Under the pieces are notes generated by a model. The model was not told the DNA's origin, did not search any database, and saw only the letters and a list, made by a program, of their open reading frames with translations. A program made the position numbers and the translations under genes. A stretch of 64,000 bases of DNA from Holophagales bacterium (lineage in GTDB: Bacteria > Acidobacteriota > Thermoanaerobaculia > Multivoradales > Multivoraceae). Location: assembly GCA_009836625.1 (NCBI GenBank), contig VXVC01000004.1, positions 1,325,037 through 1,389,036 of the forward strand, given 5' to 3'. Shown piece after piece: positions 1,008 through 8,372 of the stretch; position 1 is the stretch's first letter, and every line of letters begins with the position of its first letter.

Positions 1008-3410
1008 CTACTGACCCCTGACAGGAATCCCCTGCCGGTACTGCTCCAGCCTGCGATTCAGCAACTCGAGCAGCCGCTCCCGGTCGGGCGAGTCGTTCCG
1101 CGCGTCGCCGACGATCTCGAGCGCCTTCTCTACCGTCCGCGCCGCCGCTGCGAAGTCGCCGGTCTCGGCCTGGGCGGCCGCCAGGGTCTCGAGCAGAGCC
1201 GGCTCGGCGCCGCCGGCGACCGCGTTGAGTTCGAGGGCGATCAGGAGCGCGAGCTGGCCGTCGCGCCGGCCGGCGTCCGGATGGGTTGCCAGGGTCCAGG
1301 CGATGTCATTGCCCCGCGCCAGGAGGTTCCGGTCCTCGACGTAGGCGCGACGGAGGTGCTCCGCGCCCTCGGCGGCCCCGGCCGGACCGCCGCGGATCAG
1401 GGCCAGTCCGAGTTCGTGGCGGCCCGCGGCGTGATCGGGGTCGTGCGAGAGCAGCGCCCGGTAGTTCTCGATCGCCTCTTCCAGGCGGCTCGCCGCGGCC
1501 GCGATCCGGGCCGCTCCGTAGAGCGCCTCCGTGTCCCGCGGTTCGACTTCGAGGATCGCCCGGTAGTGTCCCCAGGCGGCGCCGAGTTCGTCACTGCGGA
1601 CGGCGGCTTCCGCCAGGACCCGGTGAGCTTCGACGTGGCGCGGATCGATCGTGACAACGGCCGCGAACTGCTCCATCGCCTCCCGCAGGCGCTCCGCCTT
1701 GCCCAGCAACTGACCGTAGAGATACCGCAGCTCCACGTCACGCGGACTCTCCGCCACCGCGCGCCCGAGCTCCAGCAAGGCCTCGTCCGTGCGTCCCTCC
1801 CGGTCGAGCAGTTCGGCAAGGCGCACGCGGGCCGCCACGTCTCCCGGATTGGCGGCGAGCGCGGCCTCGGCCTGCGCCCGCACCGAGCCGGTGTCGCCGG
1901 CATCGAGGAGAGCGTTCTGCCAGGCGGCCCGCGCCGCCGGATCGTCGGGTTCGAGGTCGAGGGCGGCGCGGGCATACCGGGCCGCGGCCTCGTTGTCCCC
2001 ACGCCGGCCTTCGAGCACGGTCAGGCGCTGGAGCGACCTGAACAGGCGATCCCGCGCCCCCTGCCGCTCGAATGACGCTGCGCCGCCATCGTCGAGGCGA
2101 GCCTGCTCCACGTCGACCGAACGCCGCAGCAGGGCCACGGACTCCTCGGGAAACCGCTCCTCGTACCAGCGCGCGTAGCTCGCGAGCGACACTTCGTCCG
2201 GGGGCTCCGTGAACCAGCGGCCTGGAAGCGCCGCCGACGCGACGCGCAGGTCGGAGTCCCGCGCGTCGAGCAGTTCGAGGTCCGCGATCAGGTCATTGGC
2301 GGTCACGCCTCCCCGGTAGAGCACGGCGACCCGGCCCTCGCCGTCGAGCAGCATGGAGAACGGGAGCGACAGCGGGAAGCGGCGGTCGAACAGCGATCTC
2401 TTGACGATCTCGACCTTGTCCAGCGTCTCCTCGGTCGCCATGCCGTTCGGGAACGGGAAGCGGATCTCGTCCATGAAGCTCCGCGCCGCCGCTTCGGTCG
2501 TGGTCGGGACGTCGCCCATGCCGTCCGTCGACAGCGCGGCGATCTCGAGACCAGCGGCCCGCAGCGCACCCTCCTCGTTCGCCAGGTCCTGCAGCTCGAA
2601 ACGGCAGGGAACGCACCAGCTCGCCCAGATGTTGACCAGCACCGGCCGGCCCTGGCCCGCCTCGACCGCGACCGGTTCGGAGGCGTCGAACGAGCGGAGC
2701 GTCAAGGAAGGGGCCGGCGGACGCGGCGCCAGCACGACACGCGCGCCCGTGGTCGCCGACGGCGGCGCCTGGGCACGCGGCGTCAACGGTGCCCGTCTCG
2801 GTCGCGCCGGCGCGGCCTCCGCCCGGCCGCTGCCCTGGACGATGCGGTAGCGGCCTCCGGCCTCGACGCCGGCGAACGTCTCGCTGCCGCCGCCGGGCCA
2901 ACGGACGCTCACCGGACGCGAAACCTCGCTGTCGCCGAGACCGAAGTGGAGCCAGCGGCTCGACTGCGAAAGGAAACCCTCGCCGGCACGGACGGTGCGC
3001 CGCAACACGCCGTCCGTCGTCGCCAGCTCGACCCGCGCTCCGACCGCGTCCCGGTTCGTGCCGGCGCCGTCCCCCTCAAGACGCAGGGCAACGAAGCGCC
3101 GCCCCGCCGGGAGTTCGTTGCGCATCAGCCGCAAACGTGGCGCGGTGCGGTTGCTGATCGCCACGTCCAGGTCACCGTCGCCCTCCAGGTCGAGGAAGCC
3201 GACGCCGCGGCCGTCGTCCGGGAAGTCCAGGCCGCTCACCGCCGACGCGTTGGCGAAGGCGCCGCCGGCATCACCGGGGTTCAGAAAGACACAGTTCCGC
3301 TCGTTGCCGCTGAAGGAGAGTCCCTCGTCGAGCCGTTCGTGAAGTGCGCGCAGCGACTCGAGATACGGCTCCAGCGAGCGGTCATCCGGCGAACTGGGCG
3401 CACGCGGCAC
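1008..3410 (-). CDS. ASPIC/UnbV - thioredoxin (TlpA-like) - TPR protein, 3' part of a frame split by TGA
   Basis: This is the downstream half of one long frame. It stays open back to the TGA at 3432-3434, and the codons between that TGA and the GTG at 3410 read SFFWRQVV, so the protein probably does not begin here. Order of domains from the GTG: a last FG-GAP-like unit (GFLDLEGDGDLDVAISN, about residues 70-90), an ASPIC/UnbV domain (about 105-190), a TlpA/ResA-type thioredoxin fold with active site WASWCVPC (about 262-269), then many TPR units to the end (about 490-790). The GTG has no convincing Shine-Dalgarno sequence and lies inside a hairpin. The family is extracytoplasmic; the thioredoxin CVPC pair suggests disulfide or redox chemistry. 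Independent expression from GTG 3410 is possible but looks poor. See the entry spanning 1008-5234. Confidence 0.85.
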   Translation of the reverse strand: MPRAPSSPDDRSLEPYLESLRALHERLDEGLSFSGNERNCVFLNPGDAGGAFANASAVSGLDFPDDGRGVGFLDLEGDGDLDVAISNRTAPRLRLMRNELPAGRRFVALRLEGDGAGTNRDAVGARVELATTDGVLRRTVRAGEGFLSQSSRWLHFGLGDSEVSRPVSVRWPGGGSETFAGVEAGGRYRIVQGSGRAEAAPARPRRAPLTPRAQAPPSATTGARVVLAPRPPAPSLTLRSFDASEPVAVEAGQGRPVLVNIWASWCVPCRFELQDLANEEGALRAAGLEIAALSTDGMGDVPTTTEAAARSFMDEIRFPFPNGMATEETLDKVEIVKRSLFDRRFPLSLPFSMLLDGEGRVAVLYRGGVTANDLIADLELLDARDSDLRVASAALPGRWFTEPPDEVSLASYARWYEERFPEESVALLRRSVDVEQARLDDGGAASFERQGARDRLFRSLQRLTVLEGRRGDNEAAARYARAALDLEPDDPAARAAWQNALLDAGDTGSVRAQAEAALAANPGDVAARVRLAELLDREGRTDEALLELGRAVAESPRDVELRYLYGQLLGKAERLREAMEQFAAVVTIDPRHVEAHRVLAEAAVRSDELGAAWGHYRAILEVEPRDTEALYGAARIAAAASRLEEAIENYRALLSHDPDHAAGRHELGLALIRGGPAGAAEGAEHLRRAYVEDRNLLARGNDIAWTLATHPDAGRRDGQLALLIALELNAVAGGAEPALLETLAAAQAETGDFAAAARTVEKALEIVGDARNDSPDRERLLELLNRRLEQYRQGIPVRGQ

Positions 3411-3434
3411 GACCTGCCGCCAGAAGAAGCTTCA
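3404..3434 (-). promoter_or_regulatory. SECIS-like hairpin following in-frame UGA
   Basis: On the minus strand the stop codon TGA (3434-3432) is followed by 11 nt, then the perfect 6-bp stem GCGGCA/TGCCGC (3420-3415 with 3409-3404) closing the 5-nt loop GGTCG (3414-3410). The published bacterial SECIS pattern is a stem-loop whose 3-14 nt loop begins about 16-37 nt after UGA and has a G in its first two positions. The E. coli fdhF element has the loop GGUCU 18 nt after UGA, and SelB contacts that G and U. Here the loop begins 18 nt downstream. No bulged U in the stem is obvious, which is a difference from fdhF. Confidence 0.6.
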
Positions 3435-5234
3435 CAGGTCGTCCGGGAGTGTCTGGGTCAGGTTGCCGTTGGCAACCACCAGGTCCTCCCAGCCGTCGTT
3501 GTTGATGTCGGCGAAGACGGACGACCAGGACCAGCGACCCATCGTGACGTTGGCGTCCACGCTGCGATCGCGGAAAGCGCCGCCCGAAGTACCCGCGAAC
3601 AGGGAGTTGCCGCGCGCCATGCGCTGGACCTCCGCCAGCGGACCGGCGCGCTGCCGGTCGCGCTCGAACTTCCGCTGATAGGTGATCCGGTTGCCGGCCG
3701 CCGAGAACATGTTGCCCACGTAGACGTCCATCCGTCCGTCCCGGTTGTAGTCGGCCCAGCTCACGGACATCCCGGAGGAGATGTCCTCGACGCCTGCCTC
3801 GCCGGCCACGTCGACGAAGCGGCCGCCGTCATTGCGGTACAAGTTGTTGCGGCCGTAGTCGTTCGCGACGTAGAGGTCCGCGTCGCCGTCGCCGTCGAAG
3901 TCCTCCCAGGATGCAGCCAGGCTGAAACGGCGGTTGTTCACATCGAGTCCCGCCTCGACCGTCGCATCGACGAAGCGGAAGCCCCCGTCGTTGCGCAGCA
4001 GCACGTTGCGGCCGCCGTTGTTCGCGTCGTGGTAGGGCACGGGACTGGCGACGCCCCGCTCGTCGTAGGCACGCCGGTAGCCGCAGATGTAGAGATCGAG
4101 GTCGCCGTCGCCATCGTAGTCGGCGGCGGACAGCGAGTTGCTGTCCGGGATGTTGCCGGCGATGTGGCGAACGCGGGCGAATTGACCGCCGCCGTCGTTC
4201 TCGAGCACCAGCACCGCGGGCCGGCTGGACAGGACGAGGTCCTGGTCGCCGTCATTGTCCAGGTCGACGAACAGCCCGGCGAGGGCGCGTTCCAGGTAGT
4301 CGATCGCGGCTTCCGCCGAGCGGTCGTCGAACGTGCCTTCCCGGTTCTGAACATAGAGACGGTTCGGCAGGCCGCCCTGCTCGGGCAGGAAGATGTCGTC
4401 CAGCCCGTCCCCGTTGACATCGGCGACCGACACGCCCTGCCAGCCGGTCTTGTTGTAGCCGACCGCCTTCGGTATCCGGTTGAGCCAGGCGTCGGGCGAC
4501 TGCAGCAACTGGTCCTGGTAGCTAGGGTTGTGGCCGACGGCGGCTTCGGTGACGTCGACGAAGAGGGGGCCGCGGGGAGTCGACGTCTCCTCGTAGTCGG
4601 CAACCTCGACCCTGAGCATCAGCGGCCCGCCGTCGCCGTCCGCCGGCAACCTCCAGATGGTCGACCAGACCGCGTTCAACTGCCGGCTGCCGGCCGGTCC
4701 CGCGACCGAGGCCTCGAAGTGCGCAAGGATCGTGAACCCGGCGGAGCCGGCATCAACCGAGTAGAGCTTGAAGTCCGCCCGCGGAGACCGGTCGCCGGCC
4801 AGCCGCTCGGCGAGAGCGCCGAGTGCGCGCCTGAAGCCCTGGGCGCCGCGATAAGTCGTAGCCGCGCCACTCACGCTCCCGCTATCGACGGCGAACGCCG
4901 TGCCCCGGTAGCGCGCGGTCAGTTCACCGGGCACGAACCCCGACGACTCGAAAGCCTGATCGACGACCGACGCGACATCCCCTGACGCCAAGGCATCGGG
5001 GCCATCCGCGGCAACGTCCGCGAGCCACGCAGCGACGCTCTTGAGCTGGGCCTCAGCCTGTTCGCTGAGCGCCTCGGTGTCCCAACCGTCGGCCCGCGGA
5101 TCGACAGCGGCGGCGAAGTTCTCAGGCTCGAAGGCCGGTGTGACTTGCGCCTGCGCACGCTGCGCCGACGCCGCGGACGGAGCGACCGCCACGGCCAGCA
5201 CGAGGACGACTCGGAAGATCCGCACCGCCGACAC
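3432..5234 (-). CDS. FG-GAP/VCBS repeat protein (CRTAC1-like), 5' part of a frame split by TGA
   Basis: It starts with a clear signal peptide (MSAVRIFRVVLVLAVAVAPS, cleavage near ASA-Q), so the product is exported. About residues 30-250 form a poorly recognisable N-terminal region. From about residue 265 there are repeated calcium-binding FG-GAP units with DxDGDGxxD loops (VNGDGLDD, LDNDGDQD, YDGDGDLD, FDGDGDAD, YNRDGRMD, INNDGWED), which build a beta-propeller. Homologous CRTAC1 proteins continue directly into an ASPIC/UnbV domain, but here a TGA follows the residues LPDDL and the next codons continue the same frame. It is divergent from the molybdopterin oxidoreductase gene, with 28 bp between the two starts. 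Read alone it would be a propeller lacking its last blade. The family call is secure; whether this is a complete protein is doubtful. Confidence 0.85.
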   Translation of the reverse strand: MSAVRIFRVVLVLAVAVAPSAASAQRAQAQVTPAFEPENFAAAVDPRADGWDTEALSEQAEAQLKSVAAWLADVAADGPDALASGDVASVVDQAFESSGFVPGELTARYRGTAFAVDSGSVSGAATTYRGAQGFRRALGALAERLAGDRSPRADFKLYSVDAGSAGFTILAHFEASVAGPAGSRQLNAVWSTIWRLPADGDGGPLMLRVEVADYEETSTPRGPLFVDVTEAAVGHNPSYQDQLLQSPDAWLNRIPKAVGYNKTGWQGVSVADVNGDGLDDIFLPEQGGLPNRLYVQNREGTFDDRSAEAAIDYLERALAGLFVDLDNDGDQDLVLSSRPAVLVLENDGGGQFARVRHIAGNIPDSNSLSAADYDGDGDLDLYICGYRRAYDERGVASPVPYHDANNGGRNVLLRNDGGFRFVDATVEAGLDVNNRRFSLAASWEDFDGDGDADLYVANDYGRNNLYRNDGGRFVDVAGEAGVEDISSGMSVSWADYNRDGRMDVYVGNMFSAAGNRITYQRKFERDRQRAGPLAEVQRMARGNSLFAGTSGGAFRDRSVDANVTMGRWSWSSVFADINNDGWEDLVVANGNLTQTLPDDL

Positions 5235-5262
5235 TCTAACGCTGCTCTTCTATGATCGGTCG

Positions 5263-7473
5263 GTGAGCCCCAGCCCGCGGACCCCCTTTGGCCTGGGGCA
5301 AACCAAACCGCGCCACTACCTGGAAATGGCCAAGGTGGCCTGGCGGAACCGGGACGAAGCGGGATATGCGTGGCGCATTCTGCGAGACGGCGTCTGCGAC
5401 GGCTGCGCGCTGGGGACCTCGGGGCTGCGCGACTGGACGCTGGACGGCGTGCACCTGTGCATGGTCCGGCTCGATCTGCTGCGGCTGAACACGATGCCGG
5501 CGCTCGACCCGGCGCTGCTCGCCGACGCCGAAGCTCTGGCCTCGCGCGGCTCCACGGCGATGCGCGGTCTGGGGCGACTGGCCTGCCCGATGCTGCGTCG
5601 AGCCGGCGAGCCGGGTTTCCGGCGCGTCTCCTGGCCCGAGGCGATCGACATCGCCGCCATGGGGCTGGCCGGAGTCCGCGAACGCGACCCCACGCGCGCG
5701 GCCTTCTTCCTGACCTCGCGCGGCATTCCCAACGAGACCTACTACGTGGCGCAGAAGGCCGCCCGGTTCTTCGGCACACCCCACGTCGACACCGCCGCGC
5801 GCCTCTGCCACGCGGCGTCGACCATCGCGCTCAGGCGCGCCCTGGGGGTTGGCGCGGCCACGAACTCCTATCGCGACTGGCTCGATGCGGACCTGATCGT
5901 GTTCTTCGGTTCCAACGTGCCGAACAACCAGCCGGTCACCATCAAGTACCTTCACTTCGCGCGCCGCCGCGGCACGGAGATCGCGGTGGTGAACCCCTAC
6001 CGGGAACCCGGCCTCGACCGCTACTGGGTGCCATCGGTTGCGTCGAGCGCCCTGTTCGGCACCGACCTCGCCGAACACTGGTTCGCCGTGGATACCGGCG
6101 GCGATCTCGCTTTCCTCAACGGCACGATGAAGGCACTGCTCGACCGTCCAGGAGGAGTCGCGCGCGATTTCGTCGAACGCTCAACCGAGAACTTCGCCGA
6201 GGTCGAGACGGCGCTCCGCGACACCTCCTGGGAGACGATCGAGCGCTCAAGCGGCGCGTCGCGCGCCGAGATGGAGCGCTTCGCCAGCCTTCTTTGCTCC
6301 AGGCCCAAAACGATCCTGGTCTGGTCGATGGGGCTGACCCAGCACCGCCACGGCGTCGACACCGTGCTGGCGCTCGCCAACCTGGGCCTGATGCGCGGGC
6401 TTCCGGGCAAGGCCGGAGCCGGCCTTGTGCCGATTCGCGGTCACTCCGGGGTGCAGGGGGGCGCCGAGGTCGGCTGCACCCCGGAGTCGGACACGGAAAT
6501 CCTCGACCGCTGGGCGGACGCCTGGGGCTTCGAACCGCCGCGCGGCCCCGGCCTGGCAGCCACCGGGCAGATCGAGGCGGCGGCGGCAGGGGTGATCGAC
6601 GCGTGGTGGATCGTCGGCGGCAACTTCCTCGAGACGGCGCCGGAACCCGAACGCCAGAAGAGCGCCCTGCATCGGCCCGCGCTTCGCATTCACCAGGATG
6701 TCGTGCTGAACACCGCCATGCTGGTCGAACCGAGCGACACCGTGCTGCTGCTGCCGGCGACGACGCGCTACGAGATCCCAGGCGGCGTGACCGAAACGAC
6801 GACCGAGCGGCGCATCGTCTTCTCGCCCTCGATTCGCCACGACGGCGCCGAAAGCCGAACGCTCGGCGAGTGCCGGCCGGAGTGGGAGGTGCTGTGCGAG
6901 GTCGTCTCCAGGGTCCGGCCGGAGCCGGCGGGCGCGCTTGACTTCCCGGACACGGCCTCGGTCCGGGACGAGATCGCCCTGGTCCAACCACGTTACGCCG
7001 GGATCGAGAACCTGAAGCGAAAGGGCGACCAGTTCCAGTGGGGCGGTCCGCACCTGTTCGAGGACGGGCGCTTCGCCACGCCATCCGGCCGCGCGAGGTT
7101 CCATGCGGTCGAACCGCCTGCGGATCGGGAGCTGCTCGACGGCGAGCTCTTCCTCTCCACGCGACGCGGGCGGCAGTTCAACTCGATGGTCCACGCCGGG
7201 CGCGATCCCCTGACCGGCCTCGAGCGCTCCGACCTGCTGATGAACGCGGAGGATGGGCGGGCACGCGGCATCGGAGCCGGCGAGCGGGTCGTCGTCTCGT
7301 CGCCGGTGTCACGGATCGAGTTCGTGGCCCGCTTCGGGCAGATCAAGGCCGGCAACGTCGAAGCGCACTGGCCCGAGTGCATGGAGCTGCTGCCCTGGTC
7401 CCTGGACCCCGACTCCGGCGAGCCGGAGTATGGCGTCCGCGTACACGTCGAACGAACGGAAGCCCTGGCGTGA
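5263..7473 (+). CDS. YdeP/FdhF-type molybdopterin oxidoreductase alpha subunit
   Basis: About 736 residues, the usual size of the FdhF/YdeP family (E. coli YdeP is close to 760). The N-terminal block GVCDGCALGTSGLRDWTLDG and LNTMPALD are family hallmarks. The molybdenum ligand position reads ARLCHAAS with Cys182, where the E. coli FdhF selenoenzyme has Sec in ARVUHGPS. A C-terminal molydopterin-dinucleotide-binding domain lies around residues 600-736 (LFLSTRRGRQFNSMV). It is likely cytoplasmic; no Tat signal is seen. YdeP proteins are linked to acid or nitrosative stress and their substrate is not settled, so formate oxidation should not be assumed. The GTG start at 5263 is chosen because more upstream starts run into the divergent gene; ATG 5326 is an alternative. 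The stop overlaps the fdhD start by 4 nt (GTGA). Confidence 0.88.
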   Translation: MSPSPRTPFGLGQTKPRHYLEMAKVAWRNRDEAGYAWRILRDGVCDGCALGTSGLRDWTLDGVHLCMVRLDLLRLNTMPALDPALLADAEALASRGSTAMRGLGRLACPMLRRAGEPGFRRVSWPEAIDIAAMGLAGVRERDPTRAAFFLTSRGIPNETYYVAQKAARFFGTPHVDTAARLCHAASTIALRRALGVGAATNSYRDWLDADLIVFFGSNVPNNQPVTIKYLHFARRRGTEIAVVNPYREPGLDRYWVPSVASSALFGTDLAEHWFAVDTGGDLAFLNGTMKALLDRPGGVARDFVERSTENFAEVETALRDTSWETIERSSGASRAEMERFASLLCSRPKTILVWSMGLTQHRHGVDTVLALANLGLMRGLPGKAGAGLVPIRGHSGVQGGAEVGCTPESDTEILDRWADAWGFEPPRGPGLAATGQIEAAAAGVIDAWWIVGGNFLETAPEPERQKSALHRPALRIHQDVVLNTAMLVEPSDTVLLLPATTRYEIPGGVTETTTERRIVFSPSIRHDGAESRTLGECRPEWEVLCEVVSRVRPEPAGALDFPDTASVRDEIALVQPRYAGIENLKRKGDQFQWGGPHLFEDGRFATPSGRARFHAVEPPADRELLDGELFLSTRRGRQFNSMVHAGRDPLTGLERSDLLMNAEDGRARGIGAGERVVVSSPVSRIEFVARFGQIKAGNVEAHWPECMELLPWSLDPDSGEPEYGVRVHVERTEALA

Positions 7474-8372
7474 AGCCAGCGGTACCCGAGACGCGAGCGG
7501 AGCGCGGCGCGCTGGTCGAGCGCTCCGGCGACCTCGGGCGCGACGTGGTGGCGGTCGAGGAGCCGCTCGAGATCCGGGTCGACGGCGAGGCCGTCGTCGT
7601 GACGATGCGCAGCCCCGGCGCGGAGCGGGACCTCGCGCTCGGATACCTCTACGCCGAAGGAATGATCGAGCAGGTCGTCGACGTCGAGAAGGTGATCGTG
7701 GACGAGGCACCGCGGCTGGACGAGGCGCTGCCGCCGGACGCCGAGCCGGCCGTCCCCGGATCGATCGTCGACGTGCAGCTCTCGGCAAGGGGACGCCGGG
7801 CGGCGAACCGCCGCGCCGAGACAAGGAAGCGGGAACGGGCCTTCCGCGTCACCAGCGCCTGCGGAGTCTGCGGCAAGCCCTCACTCGAGGACCTGTGGGT
7901 GCGGCTGCCGGCGATCCACCCGCTCGATCTGGAGCCGGACCGTGAGCGGCTCCTGGTCCAGGGACTGCCGGCGACCATGCAGGAAGGCCAACCCCTCTTC
8001 GGCGACACCGGCGGCGTTCATGCGGCGGCCCTGTTCGAGGTCGCCGGCGGGCTGCCCCGATTGCTCTGGCTTCGCGAAGACATCGGACGCCACAACGCGG
8101 TCGACAAGGTCGTAGGCAAGGCGCTGCGGGCGAACCGCCTGCCCCTGGACGACACGATCCTCGCGGTCAGCGGCCGTCTCGGTTTCGAGATCGTGCAGAA
8201 GGCGGCGGTGGCCGGCATCCCCGTGCTTGCCGCGGTCGGCGCGCCGTCGAGCCTGGCCCTGGACATCGCCCACCTGGCCGGCATCCGCGTCTACGCCTTC
8301 GTCGCCGCCGACCGCAGCAATCTCTATCCTGCCGCGCCGGTCGAAGCGCGCCGACTGGACGGTTCCGATTGA
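7470..8372 (+). CDS. fdhD: Formate dehydrogenase accessory sulfurtransferase FdhD
   Basis: FdhD carries sulfur from the cysteine desulfurase IscS to the molybdenum cofactor of FdhF-like enzymes, which need a terminal sulfido ligand. The 300-residue protein has the conserved motif SACGVCGKPSLEDL with the CxxC cysteines around residue 131, the N-terminal EEPLEIRVDG and TMRSPGAERDLALGYLYAEG blocks, and the C-terminal LWLREDIGRHNAVDKVVG and GRLGFEIVQKA blocks. The GTG start overlaps the stop of the upstream oxidoreductase as GTGA, so the pair is translationally coupled and FdhD probably matures its neighbour. A sigma70-like -35 for the following gene overlaps its stop codon. Confidence 0.95.
   Translation: MKPAVPETRAERGALVERSGDLGRDVVAVEEPLEIRVDGEAVVVTMRSPGAERDLALGYLYAEGMIEQVVDVEKVIVDEAPRLDEALPPDAEPAVPGSIVDVQLSARGRRAANRRAETRKRERAFRVTSACGVCGKPSLEDLWVRLPAIHPLDLEPDRERLLVQGLPATMQEGQPLFGDTGGVHAAALFEVAGGLPRLLWLREDIGRHNAVDKVVGKALRANRLPLDDTILAVSGRLGFEIVQKAAVAGIPVLAAVGAPSSLALDIAHLAGIRVYAFVAADRSNLYPAAPVEARRLDGSD

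What the first reader, a model, noticed from the sequence alone, without database searches (positions are those of the whole stretch)
3404..3440. Candidate new selenoprotein: in-frame UGA plus SECIS-like hairpin in a CRTAC1/ASPIC-UnbV protein
The FG-GAP frame (3432-5234) and the ASPIC/thioredoxin/TPR frame (1008-3410) are in phase and separated only by one TGA. Codons after the TGA read SFFWRQVV and continue normally, and the downstream half has no credible start of its own. Eleven nt after the TGA begins the perfect hairpin GCGGCA-GGTCG-TGCCGC. Its loop starts 18 nt after the TGA. The known E. coli fdhF element has the loop GGUCU preceded by 18 nt, and SelB contacts that loop G and U. Selenocysteine would be residue 601 of about 1,408. 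I know of no published selenoprotein of this architecture, but I could not search.
Basis: partly seen in the sequence, partly recalled or inferred. Interest (0 to 1): 0.95.

Follow-up and report, generated by a model that had tools for sequence, protein, structure and literature searches.

The report
Hidden family of bacterial selenium proteins
A stop codon in the middle of a large gene of an Acidobacteriota bacterium is predicted to be read as selenocysteine, the rare selenium amino acid, and the same codon with the same folded signal behind it recurs at the same place in related genes of four bacterial phyla, so a large family of selenium proteins has likely been on record only as chopped-off halves.

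Summary
Window 1008-5234 (minus) is one gene with a single in-frame UGA (3432-3434) and a 6-bp hairpin with loop GGUCG (3404-3420). The genome holds selA, selB, selD and tRNA-Sec. All 19 same-genus copies that span the site keep the UGA inside a 13-codon invariant run. In 79 of 80 loci from Acidobacteriota, Planctomycetota, Verrucomicrobiota, a Lentisphaerota genome and a few unplaced bacteria the codon is UGA. The hairpin shows compensatory changes and decays in homologues that encode the same WRQV residues without UGA (6/6 pairs in 63 of 67 vs 1 of 15). Of the best 120 database homologues, 91 end exactly before this codon. A 2026 table of 119 prokaryotic selenoprotein families lists nothing of the kind. 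Relatives without Sec mostly carry residues other than Cys, and Sec tracks a ResA/TlpA-type CxxC later in the same chain (98 of 103 vs 7 of 38 in the main clade). I infer a beta-propeller selenol recycled by the fused thioredoxin-like domain; that chemistry is untested.

The parts
1008..5234 (-). the whole gene, GTG start to TAG stop, 1,408 residues with Sec at 601 (predicted)
   Evidence: read-through translation; full-length homologues without a stop, 40-47% identical over 80-99% of an 850-aa query
3432..3434 (-). in-frame UGA codon, predicted Sec601
   Evidence: UGA in 19 of 19 same-genus copies and 79 of 80 loci
3404..3420 (-). SECIS-type hairpin, 6-bp stem, loop GGUCG at 3410-3414
   Evidence: compensatory changes; decay without UGA; meets the bSECIS model quoted
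5160..5234 (-). signal-peptide-like N-terminus (by eye, not tested)
   Evidence: hydrophobic stretch and APSAASAQ
2829..4586 (-). CRTAC1-type FG-GAP beta-propeller (residues 217-802), which the UGA falls inside
2847..3047 (-). ASPIC/UnbV domain (residues 730-796)
   Evidence: PF07593, 59.5 bits, cut-off 23.4
2316..2717 (-). ResA/TlpA-like thiol-disulfide domain (residues 840-973), CVPC at 874-877 (window 2604-2615)
   Evidence: PF00578 over cut-off; Foldseek matches to ResA and TlpA
1389..2033 (-). TPR region (about residues 1068-1282)
   Evidence: several TPR families

Best explanation
The in-frame UGA at window 3432-3434 (minus) is predicted to be read as selenocysteine, directed by the hairpin just behind it, so that 1008-5234 would make one secreted 1,408-residue CRTAC1-type beta-propeller selenoprotein with a fused ResA/TlpA-like domain and TPR repeats. 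Shown by sequence and calls: the UGA, the covarying hairpin, the sel genes, the conservation of UGA across phyla, the decay of the hairpin where UGA is absent, and the link between Sec (or Cys) and a CxxC about 260-295 residues later in the same chain. Inferred: SelB binds the loop and delivers Sec-tRNA; Sec sits at the first residue of a helix in the propeller (predicted model); the selenol would react with a substrate or oxidant in the cell envelope and would be reduced again by the CxxC of the fused domain, or by a separate thioredoxin in the sub-clade that has no fused CxxC. The substrate is unknown.
For: Machinery: tRNA-Sec 74.1 bits (cut-off 47) and ARAGORN tRNA-SeC; SelB 326.5 bits, 356.6 with its C-terminal piece; SelA 444.8; SelD 256.3. 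Genus: 19 of 19 spanning copies have UGA; 13-codon invariant run against 5 for the next. Across phyla: 79 of 80 UGA. Hairpin: 71 distinct elements, 98.8% of cells paired (shuffled mean 94.2), 20 double changes (4.9), both 0 of 500 shuffles; slid partners 11.5-66.7%. Natural control: same WRQV residues, 6/6 pairs in 63 of 67 UGA and 1 of 15 non-UGA elements. Read-through: Trp+4 89 of 89, Arg+5 89 of 89 by five codons, Ser+1 86 of 89 by AGT, AGC and TCG. Databases: 91 of 120 homologues end at the codon. selA over cut-off in 24 of 27 UGA-form and 7 of 16 non-UGA-only genomes outside the class (Fisher p 0.0035) and in 33 of 40 genomes of other loci. One UGA-form gene lies 436 nt upstream of selA on the same strand in G148. 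Own-genome control: none of the 35 other match rows has an in-frame stop. Redox link: CxxC in 98 of 103 Sec, 4 of 5 Cys, 7 of 38 other rows of the main clade.
Against: No experiment. The hairpin's energy is ordinary in wider windows and Rfam found nothing. The loop G-U that I would ascribe to SelB is also the start of an invariant Val codon and is present in 15 of 15 non-UGA elements, so it is no separate evidence. UGA-form genomes without a selA over cut-off exist: 3 of 27 and up to 7 of 40 (completeness unknown, one of these 40 entered by its non-UGA locus). The 9 selA-less genomes are all one genus, so that test holds about one event; inside the class selA is nearly universal (132 of 148) and tells nothing. 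Non-Sec relatives keep the protein with S, D, E, G, N, A, Q, Y, H or F, so the residue is not needed for every member. On the tree the Sec-CxxC link rests on about 6 independent pairs (about 3.5 same way, 0 opposite, median p 0.25), and 11 of 11 evaluable Sec rows of the DLULP/DLUAA-type clade have no fused CxxC.
Confidence: 0.95

Rival explanations
1. UGA is a true stop and the second half is made by coupled reinitiation at the GTG (3408-3410) inside the hairpin; two proteins together fill the propeller.
For: Codon +8 is GTG in 80 of 89 UGA elements and TTG, CTG or ATG in 6 more; the hairpin could help reinitiation.
Against: Residues between UGA and GTG are kept as protein: Trp+4 89 of 89, Arg+5 89 of 89 by five codons, Ser+1 86 of 89 including TCG, and continuous homologues have the same SFFWRQVV. 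Three elements have GCG at +8. The propeller that aligns with CRTAC1 spans the site. It does not explain why the stop is UGA and never UAA or UAG at the column, nor the sel link.
Confidence: 0.02
2. UGA is read by Sec insertion mainly as a selenium-dependent switch that decides whether the thioredoxin-like and TPR tail is made; the Sec residue itself has no catalytic role.
For: The residue is dispensable in relatives: S 7, D 6, C 5, E 3, Q 2, G, A, Y, H among 27 non-stop database homologues.
Against: Termination would leave a truncated propeller. Sec or Cys goes with an intact CxxC and other residues mostly with its loss, as expected of a redox pair. Sec is kept over deep branches (118 of 182 tree rows, 12 changes at least).
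Confidence: 0.15
3. Sequencing error, pseudogene, or general reassignment of UGA in this genome.
For: None found beyond the bare stop codon.
Against: Same codon in 19 of 19 genus copies and 79 of 80 loci; the neighbouring FdhF/YdeP-type and FdhD genes end in TGA; 35 other own-genome match rows have no in-frame stop; synonymous constraint at the site.
Confidence: 0.005

Closest known systems
Bacterial selenoproteins with an in-gene SECIS (e.g. formate dehydrogenase FdhA)
   Same: UGA followed at once by a short hairpin; loop after 17 nt, G in the first loop positions, 6-bp stem, -10 kcal/mol, within the model quoted from PMC13188914; selABCD in the genome.
   Different: Scaffold is an FG-GAP/ASPIC propeller, absent from the 119 families of that paper's Table 1; non-Sec relatives are mostly not Cys; many copies per genome in some Planctomycetota.
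CRTAC1 (cartilage acidic protein 1) / ASPIC-UnbV proteins
   Different: Carries a predicted Sec in the propeller and fused thioredoxin-like and TPR parts.
ResA/TlpA thiol-disulfide oxidoreductases
   Same: Domain fold (Foldseek, ResA 2f9s E 4.8e-9) and a WxxxCxxC-type active-site motif (CVPC).
   Different: Here a domain of a larger chain; scores below NCBIfam cut-offs for ResA (37.5 of 170) and TlpA (40.8 of 230). The listed Sec-type TlpA family has Sec in the thioredoxin motif itself (UGC), this protein does not.

Membership tests
bacterial selenoprotein gene | in-frame UGA with homologous protein continuing past it | tested here: met
bacterial selenoprotein gene | bSECIS: loop 3-9 nt, stem 4-16 bp, G in first two loop positions, 16-37 nt spacing, MFE at most -7.5 | tested here: met
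   5-nt loop GGUCG, 6 bp, 17 nt, -10.0 kcal/mol for the 17-nt hairpin; covariation. In wider windows other folds compete
bacterial selenoprotein gene | selA, selB, selC, selD in the genome | tested here: met
bacterial selenoprotein gene | UGA conserved in orthologues | tested here: met
   19 of 19; 79 of 80; 30 distinct class loci; 30 of 55 phylum locus rows
bacterial selenoprotein gene | Cys-containing homologues at the Sec column (usual, not universal) | tested here: inconclusive
   Cys in 5 of 27 non-stop database homologues, 0 of 20, 0 of 25 rows
bacterial selenoprotein gene | Sec shown in the protein | not testable with these tools
   needs 75Se labelling or mass spectrometry
CRTAC1 / ASPIC-UnbV | FG-GAP repeats plus UnbV_ASPIC domain, CRTAC1 fold | tested here: met
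ResA or TlpA equivalog | NCBIfam cut-off | tested here: not met
   37.5 of 170 and 40.8 of 230 bits; so 'ResA/TlpA-like domain' only

The most novel reading that the evidence does not exclude
A whole, ancient and unrecorded class of selenoenzymes: envelope beta-propellers (FG-GAP/ASPIC) whose selenocysteine is the active residue and is recycled in cis by a fused thioredoxin domain, spread over at least four phyla and multiplied within single genomes (15 UGA-bearing match rows in one Planctomycetaceae genome), making it one of the main selenium sinks of those bacteria. It stayed hidden because annotation cuts it at the UGA and because searches built on Cys/Sec pairs have little to pair it with.
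Probability: 0.55. Interest if true: 0.95.

Novelty: new variant of a known kind. Interest (0 to 1): 0.9.

Why it matters
If true, a widespread family now annotated as truncated 'VCBS repeat-containing protein' is a selenoprotein family, with up to 15 UGA-bearing rows in one genome. It puts Sec into a beta-propeller rather than a thioredoxin-type fold, names a place where Cys/Sec-pair discovery is nearly blind, and gives a bounded, testable question: what does an envelope propeller do with selenium?

Tried and rejected
Rfam over the whole window: no match at gathering threshold. Folding energy as evidence: rejected, ordinary z-scores. selA presence inside the class: uninformative, 132 of 148. 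Loop G-U as SelB evidence: rejected, forced by Val+7 and present in 15 of 15 non-UGA elements. A conserved Cys partner for the Sec in the propeller: none; of C, H, Y and W only Y455, Y466, W568, W570, W605, W779 and the Sec column itself reach 80% in Sec rows. N579 and S642 are kept more in Sec rows than in the other rows (0.92 vs 0.52, 0.90 vs 0.32) and are leads only; model coordinates could not be read, so no distances. NCBIfam for the window protein: 15 families, none over cut-off. Literature: no held paper with selenocysteine and FG-GAP or selenoprotein and UnbV; 14 with selenoprotein and CRTAC1, whose titles and abstract starts concern human, animal or medical work (listing). PMC13188914: passages and parts 1-2 of section 7 read; PMC12013277, PMC4807772 and PMC9312934: passages only. 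Haft and Tolstoy 2025 is not held, so seen only as cited in that review; the groundwater MAG study it cites was not found; the supplementary selenoprotein list of PMC4807772 (two Planctomycetes) was not seen and could hold a member.

Full report
1. The thing itself. On the minus strand 5234-1008 is one frame interrupted by a single TGA at 3432-3434. Read through, it gives 1,408 residues: a signal-like N-terminus (by eye), FG-GAP repeats, UnbV_ASPIC (730-796), a ResA/TlpA-like domain (840-973, CVPC 874-877) and TPR repeats. Eleven nt behind the TGA starts GCGGCA-GGTCG-TGCCGC (3404-3420). The hairpin alone folds at -10.0 kcal/mol, but four wider windows give ordinary z-scores and Rfam gives no match, so the case had to be made by comparison.

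2. The genome can make Sec. tRNA-Sec is over its cut-off (74.1 against 47) and ARAGORN calls the same place tRNA-SeC. The second Rfam hit over the cut-off is a Ser tRNA by ARAGORN, so the Rfam hit alone would not do. SelB, SelA and SelD are over their cut-offs. TGA is an ordinary stop elsewhere: the neighbouring FdhF/YdeP-type and FdhD genes end in it.

3. Within the genus. The family search covered 24 genomes. Nineteen of the 21 same-genus genomes have a copy that spans the site and all 19 have TGA there; the other two hold only pieces that do not reach it. In a codon alignment of these 19 (pairwise identity down to 67%, median 89%), 13 consecutive codons around the UGA never vary; the next run is 5 codons; over the gene 194 of 734 degenerate columns with an invariant residue have an invariant codon.

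4. Across the class and phylum. In the class search 56 of 148 genomes matched. Of the loci fetched, 30 distinct ones have TGA at the column; of 20 without, 18 have Glu, one Asp, one Phe; three rows had a gap and were dropped. The TGA loci fall into motif types D[L/T]U[S/P]xFWR and DLULP[Y/F] or DLUAAF. In a sample of 396 genomes of the phylum 60 matched at 1e-50; 55 locus rows read there give TGA 30 and other codons 25, none of them Cys (several rows are one gene fetched twice).

5. Across phyla. A query made only of residues after the codon found 349 relatives in one genome per species, of which the best 80 were kept. The codon before the motif is TGA in 79 and TCG in one. Titles name Acidobacteriota, Planctomycetota, Verrucomicrobiota, one Lentisphaeria bacterium and a few unplaced bacteria. 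In the protein database search 7,634 proteins passed and the best 120 were listed: 91 end exactly before the codon (two of them are the window's own), two end for other reasons, and 27 run through with S 7, D 6, C 5, E 3, Q 2, G, A, Y, H. Names given by sources are 'VCBS repeat-containing protein' or 'tetratricopeptide repeat protein'.

6. The hairpin is under selection as RNA. I took 74 distinct 36-nt elements and dropped three (L078, L080, L083) whose stem is shifted by one nt around a 4-nt loop, one of them with a mismatch. On the remaining 71, 98.8% of cells pair (shuffled 94.2), 20 cells have changes on both sides (shuffled 4.9), covariation 0.209 (0.098), each 0 of 500 shuffles; slid partners give 11.5-66.7%. 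Middle pair: A-U 34, G-U 19, G-C 12, C-G 6. Two of the six pairs never vary. As a natural control, 15 distinct non-UGA homologues encode the same WRQV: 1 of 15 forms all six pairs, against 63 of 67 UGA elements (the better of two registers was taken in both groups; relatedness is not corrected). The loop G-T is in 15 of 15 of those as well and so proves nothing.

7. The stretch behind the UGA is translated. Over 89 distinct UGA elements, Trp+4 is kept in 89, Arg+5 in 89 by five different codons, Ser+1 in 86 by AGT, AGC and TCG. This speaks against reinitiation at the conserved +8 codon (GTG in 80 of 89).

8. Link to the Sec machinery. Outside the class, selA is over cut-off in 24 of 27 genomes with the UGA form and 7 of 16 with only other forms (p 0.0035). 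The nine without are all one genus at 99% completeness or more, so this is about one event. Of 40 further genomes reached through loci, 33 have selA over cut-off. In G148 a UGA-form gene (FG-GAP, ASPIC, redoxin-type domain) ends 436 nt before selA on the same strand; in G176 of the same genus selA is about 4.3 kb away, and I did not read what lies between.

9. History. On a FastTree of 182 rows (118 UGA, 64 not) UGA needs at least 12 changes, 8 on well-supported branches, against 53 for shuffled labels. The column itself was left in (one of 349 kept columns) and some long branches are unsure. The reading is an old Sec with repeated losses; direction was not tested.

11. Copy number. In nine genomes chosen because they had given UGA loci, 62 of 69 match rows at 1e-25 hold one TGA; one Planctomycetaceae genome has 15 of 17. 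The place of the TGA was not checked in rows without a fetched locus. The window's own genome has only this one (35 other match rows have no stop).

12. Known or new. The bSECIS model and a table of 119 prokaryotic selenoprotein families come from PMC13188914; no FG-GAP, VCBS, ASPIC or CRTAC1 entry is in the table. Searches for selenocysteine with FG-GAP and selenoprotein with UnbV found no held paper. The library is open-licence only and one key 2025 paper is not held, so novelty is likely, not certain. Why it was missed: that review describes Cys/Sec pairing as the basis of SECIS-independent searches, and this family has few Cys forms; this is inference.

Noticed in passing
window 5041-8372 (+): Divergent from the gene: an FdhF/YdeP-type molybdopterin oxidoreductase (579.3 bits, just under the 582.15 cut-off) followed by an FdhD-like gene.
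   Followed up: partly
L018 (G000:C10:26515-27438): The genome's SelD is read with Cys, not Sec, in FCGGCAAK and lies in one frame behind a pyridine-nucleotide oxidoreductase-like domain (by eye).
   Followed up: partly
L108 (G086): Two UGA-bearing ASPIC genes of the DLULP type lie in tandem on one strand.
   Followed up: partly
L139, L181, L190 (NHBP01000056.1): Three UGA-form copies lie on one 89.6-kb contig of a Planctomycetaceae MAG; one search shows five UGA rows on the 'C105' contig of its genome G500.
   Followed up: partly
L167 and L186 (isolate Bpl_9): One genome holds both a Ser form whose middle stem pair is broken (CGT) and a UGA form of the gene.
   Followed up: no
L071, L154, L172 and 'MKDTU' loci L233-L253: Several elements have loop CGTGG or CGTCG instead of GGTCG, following a change of Gln+6 to His or Arg.
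   Followed up: partly
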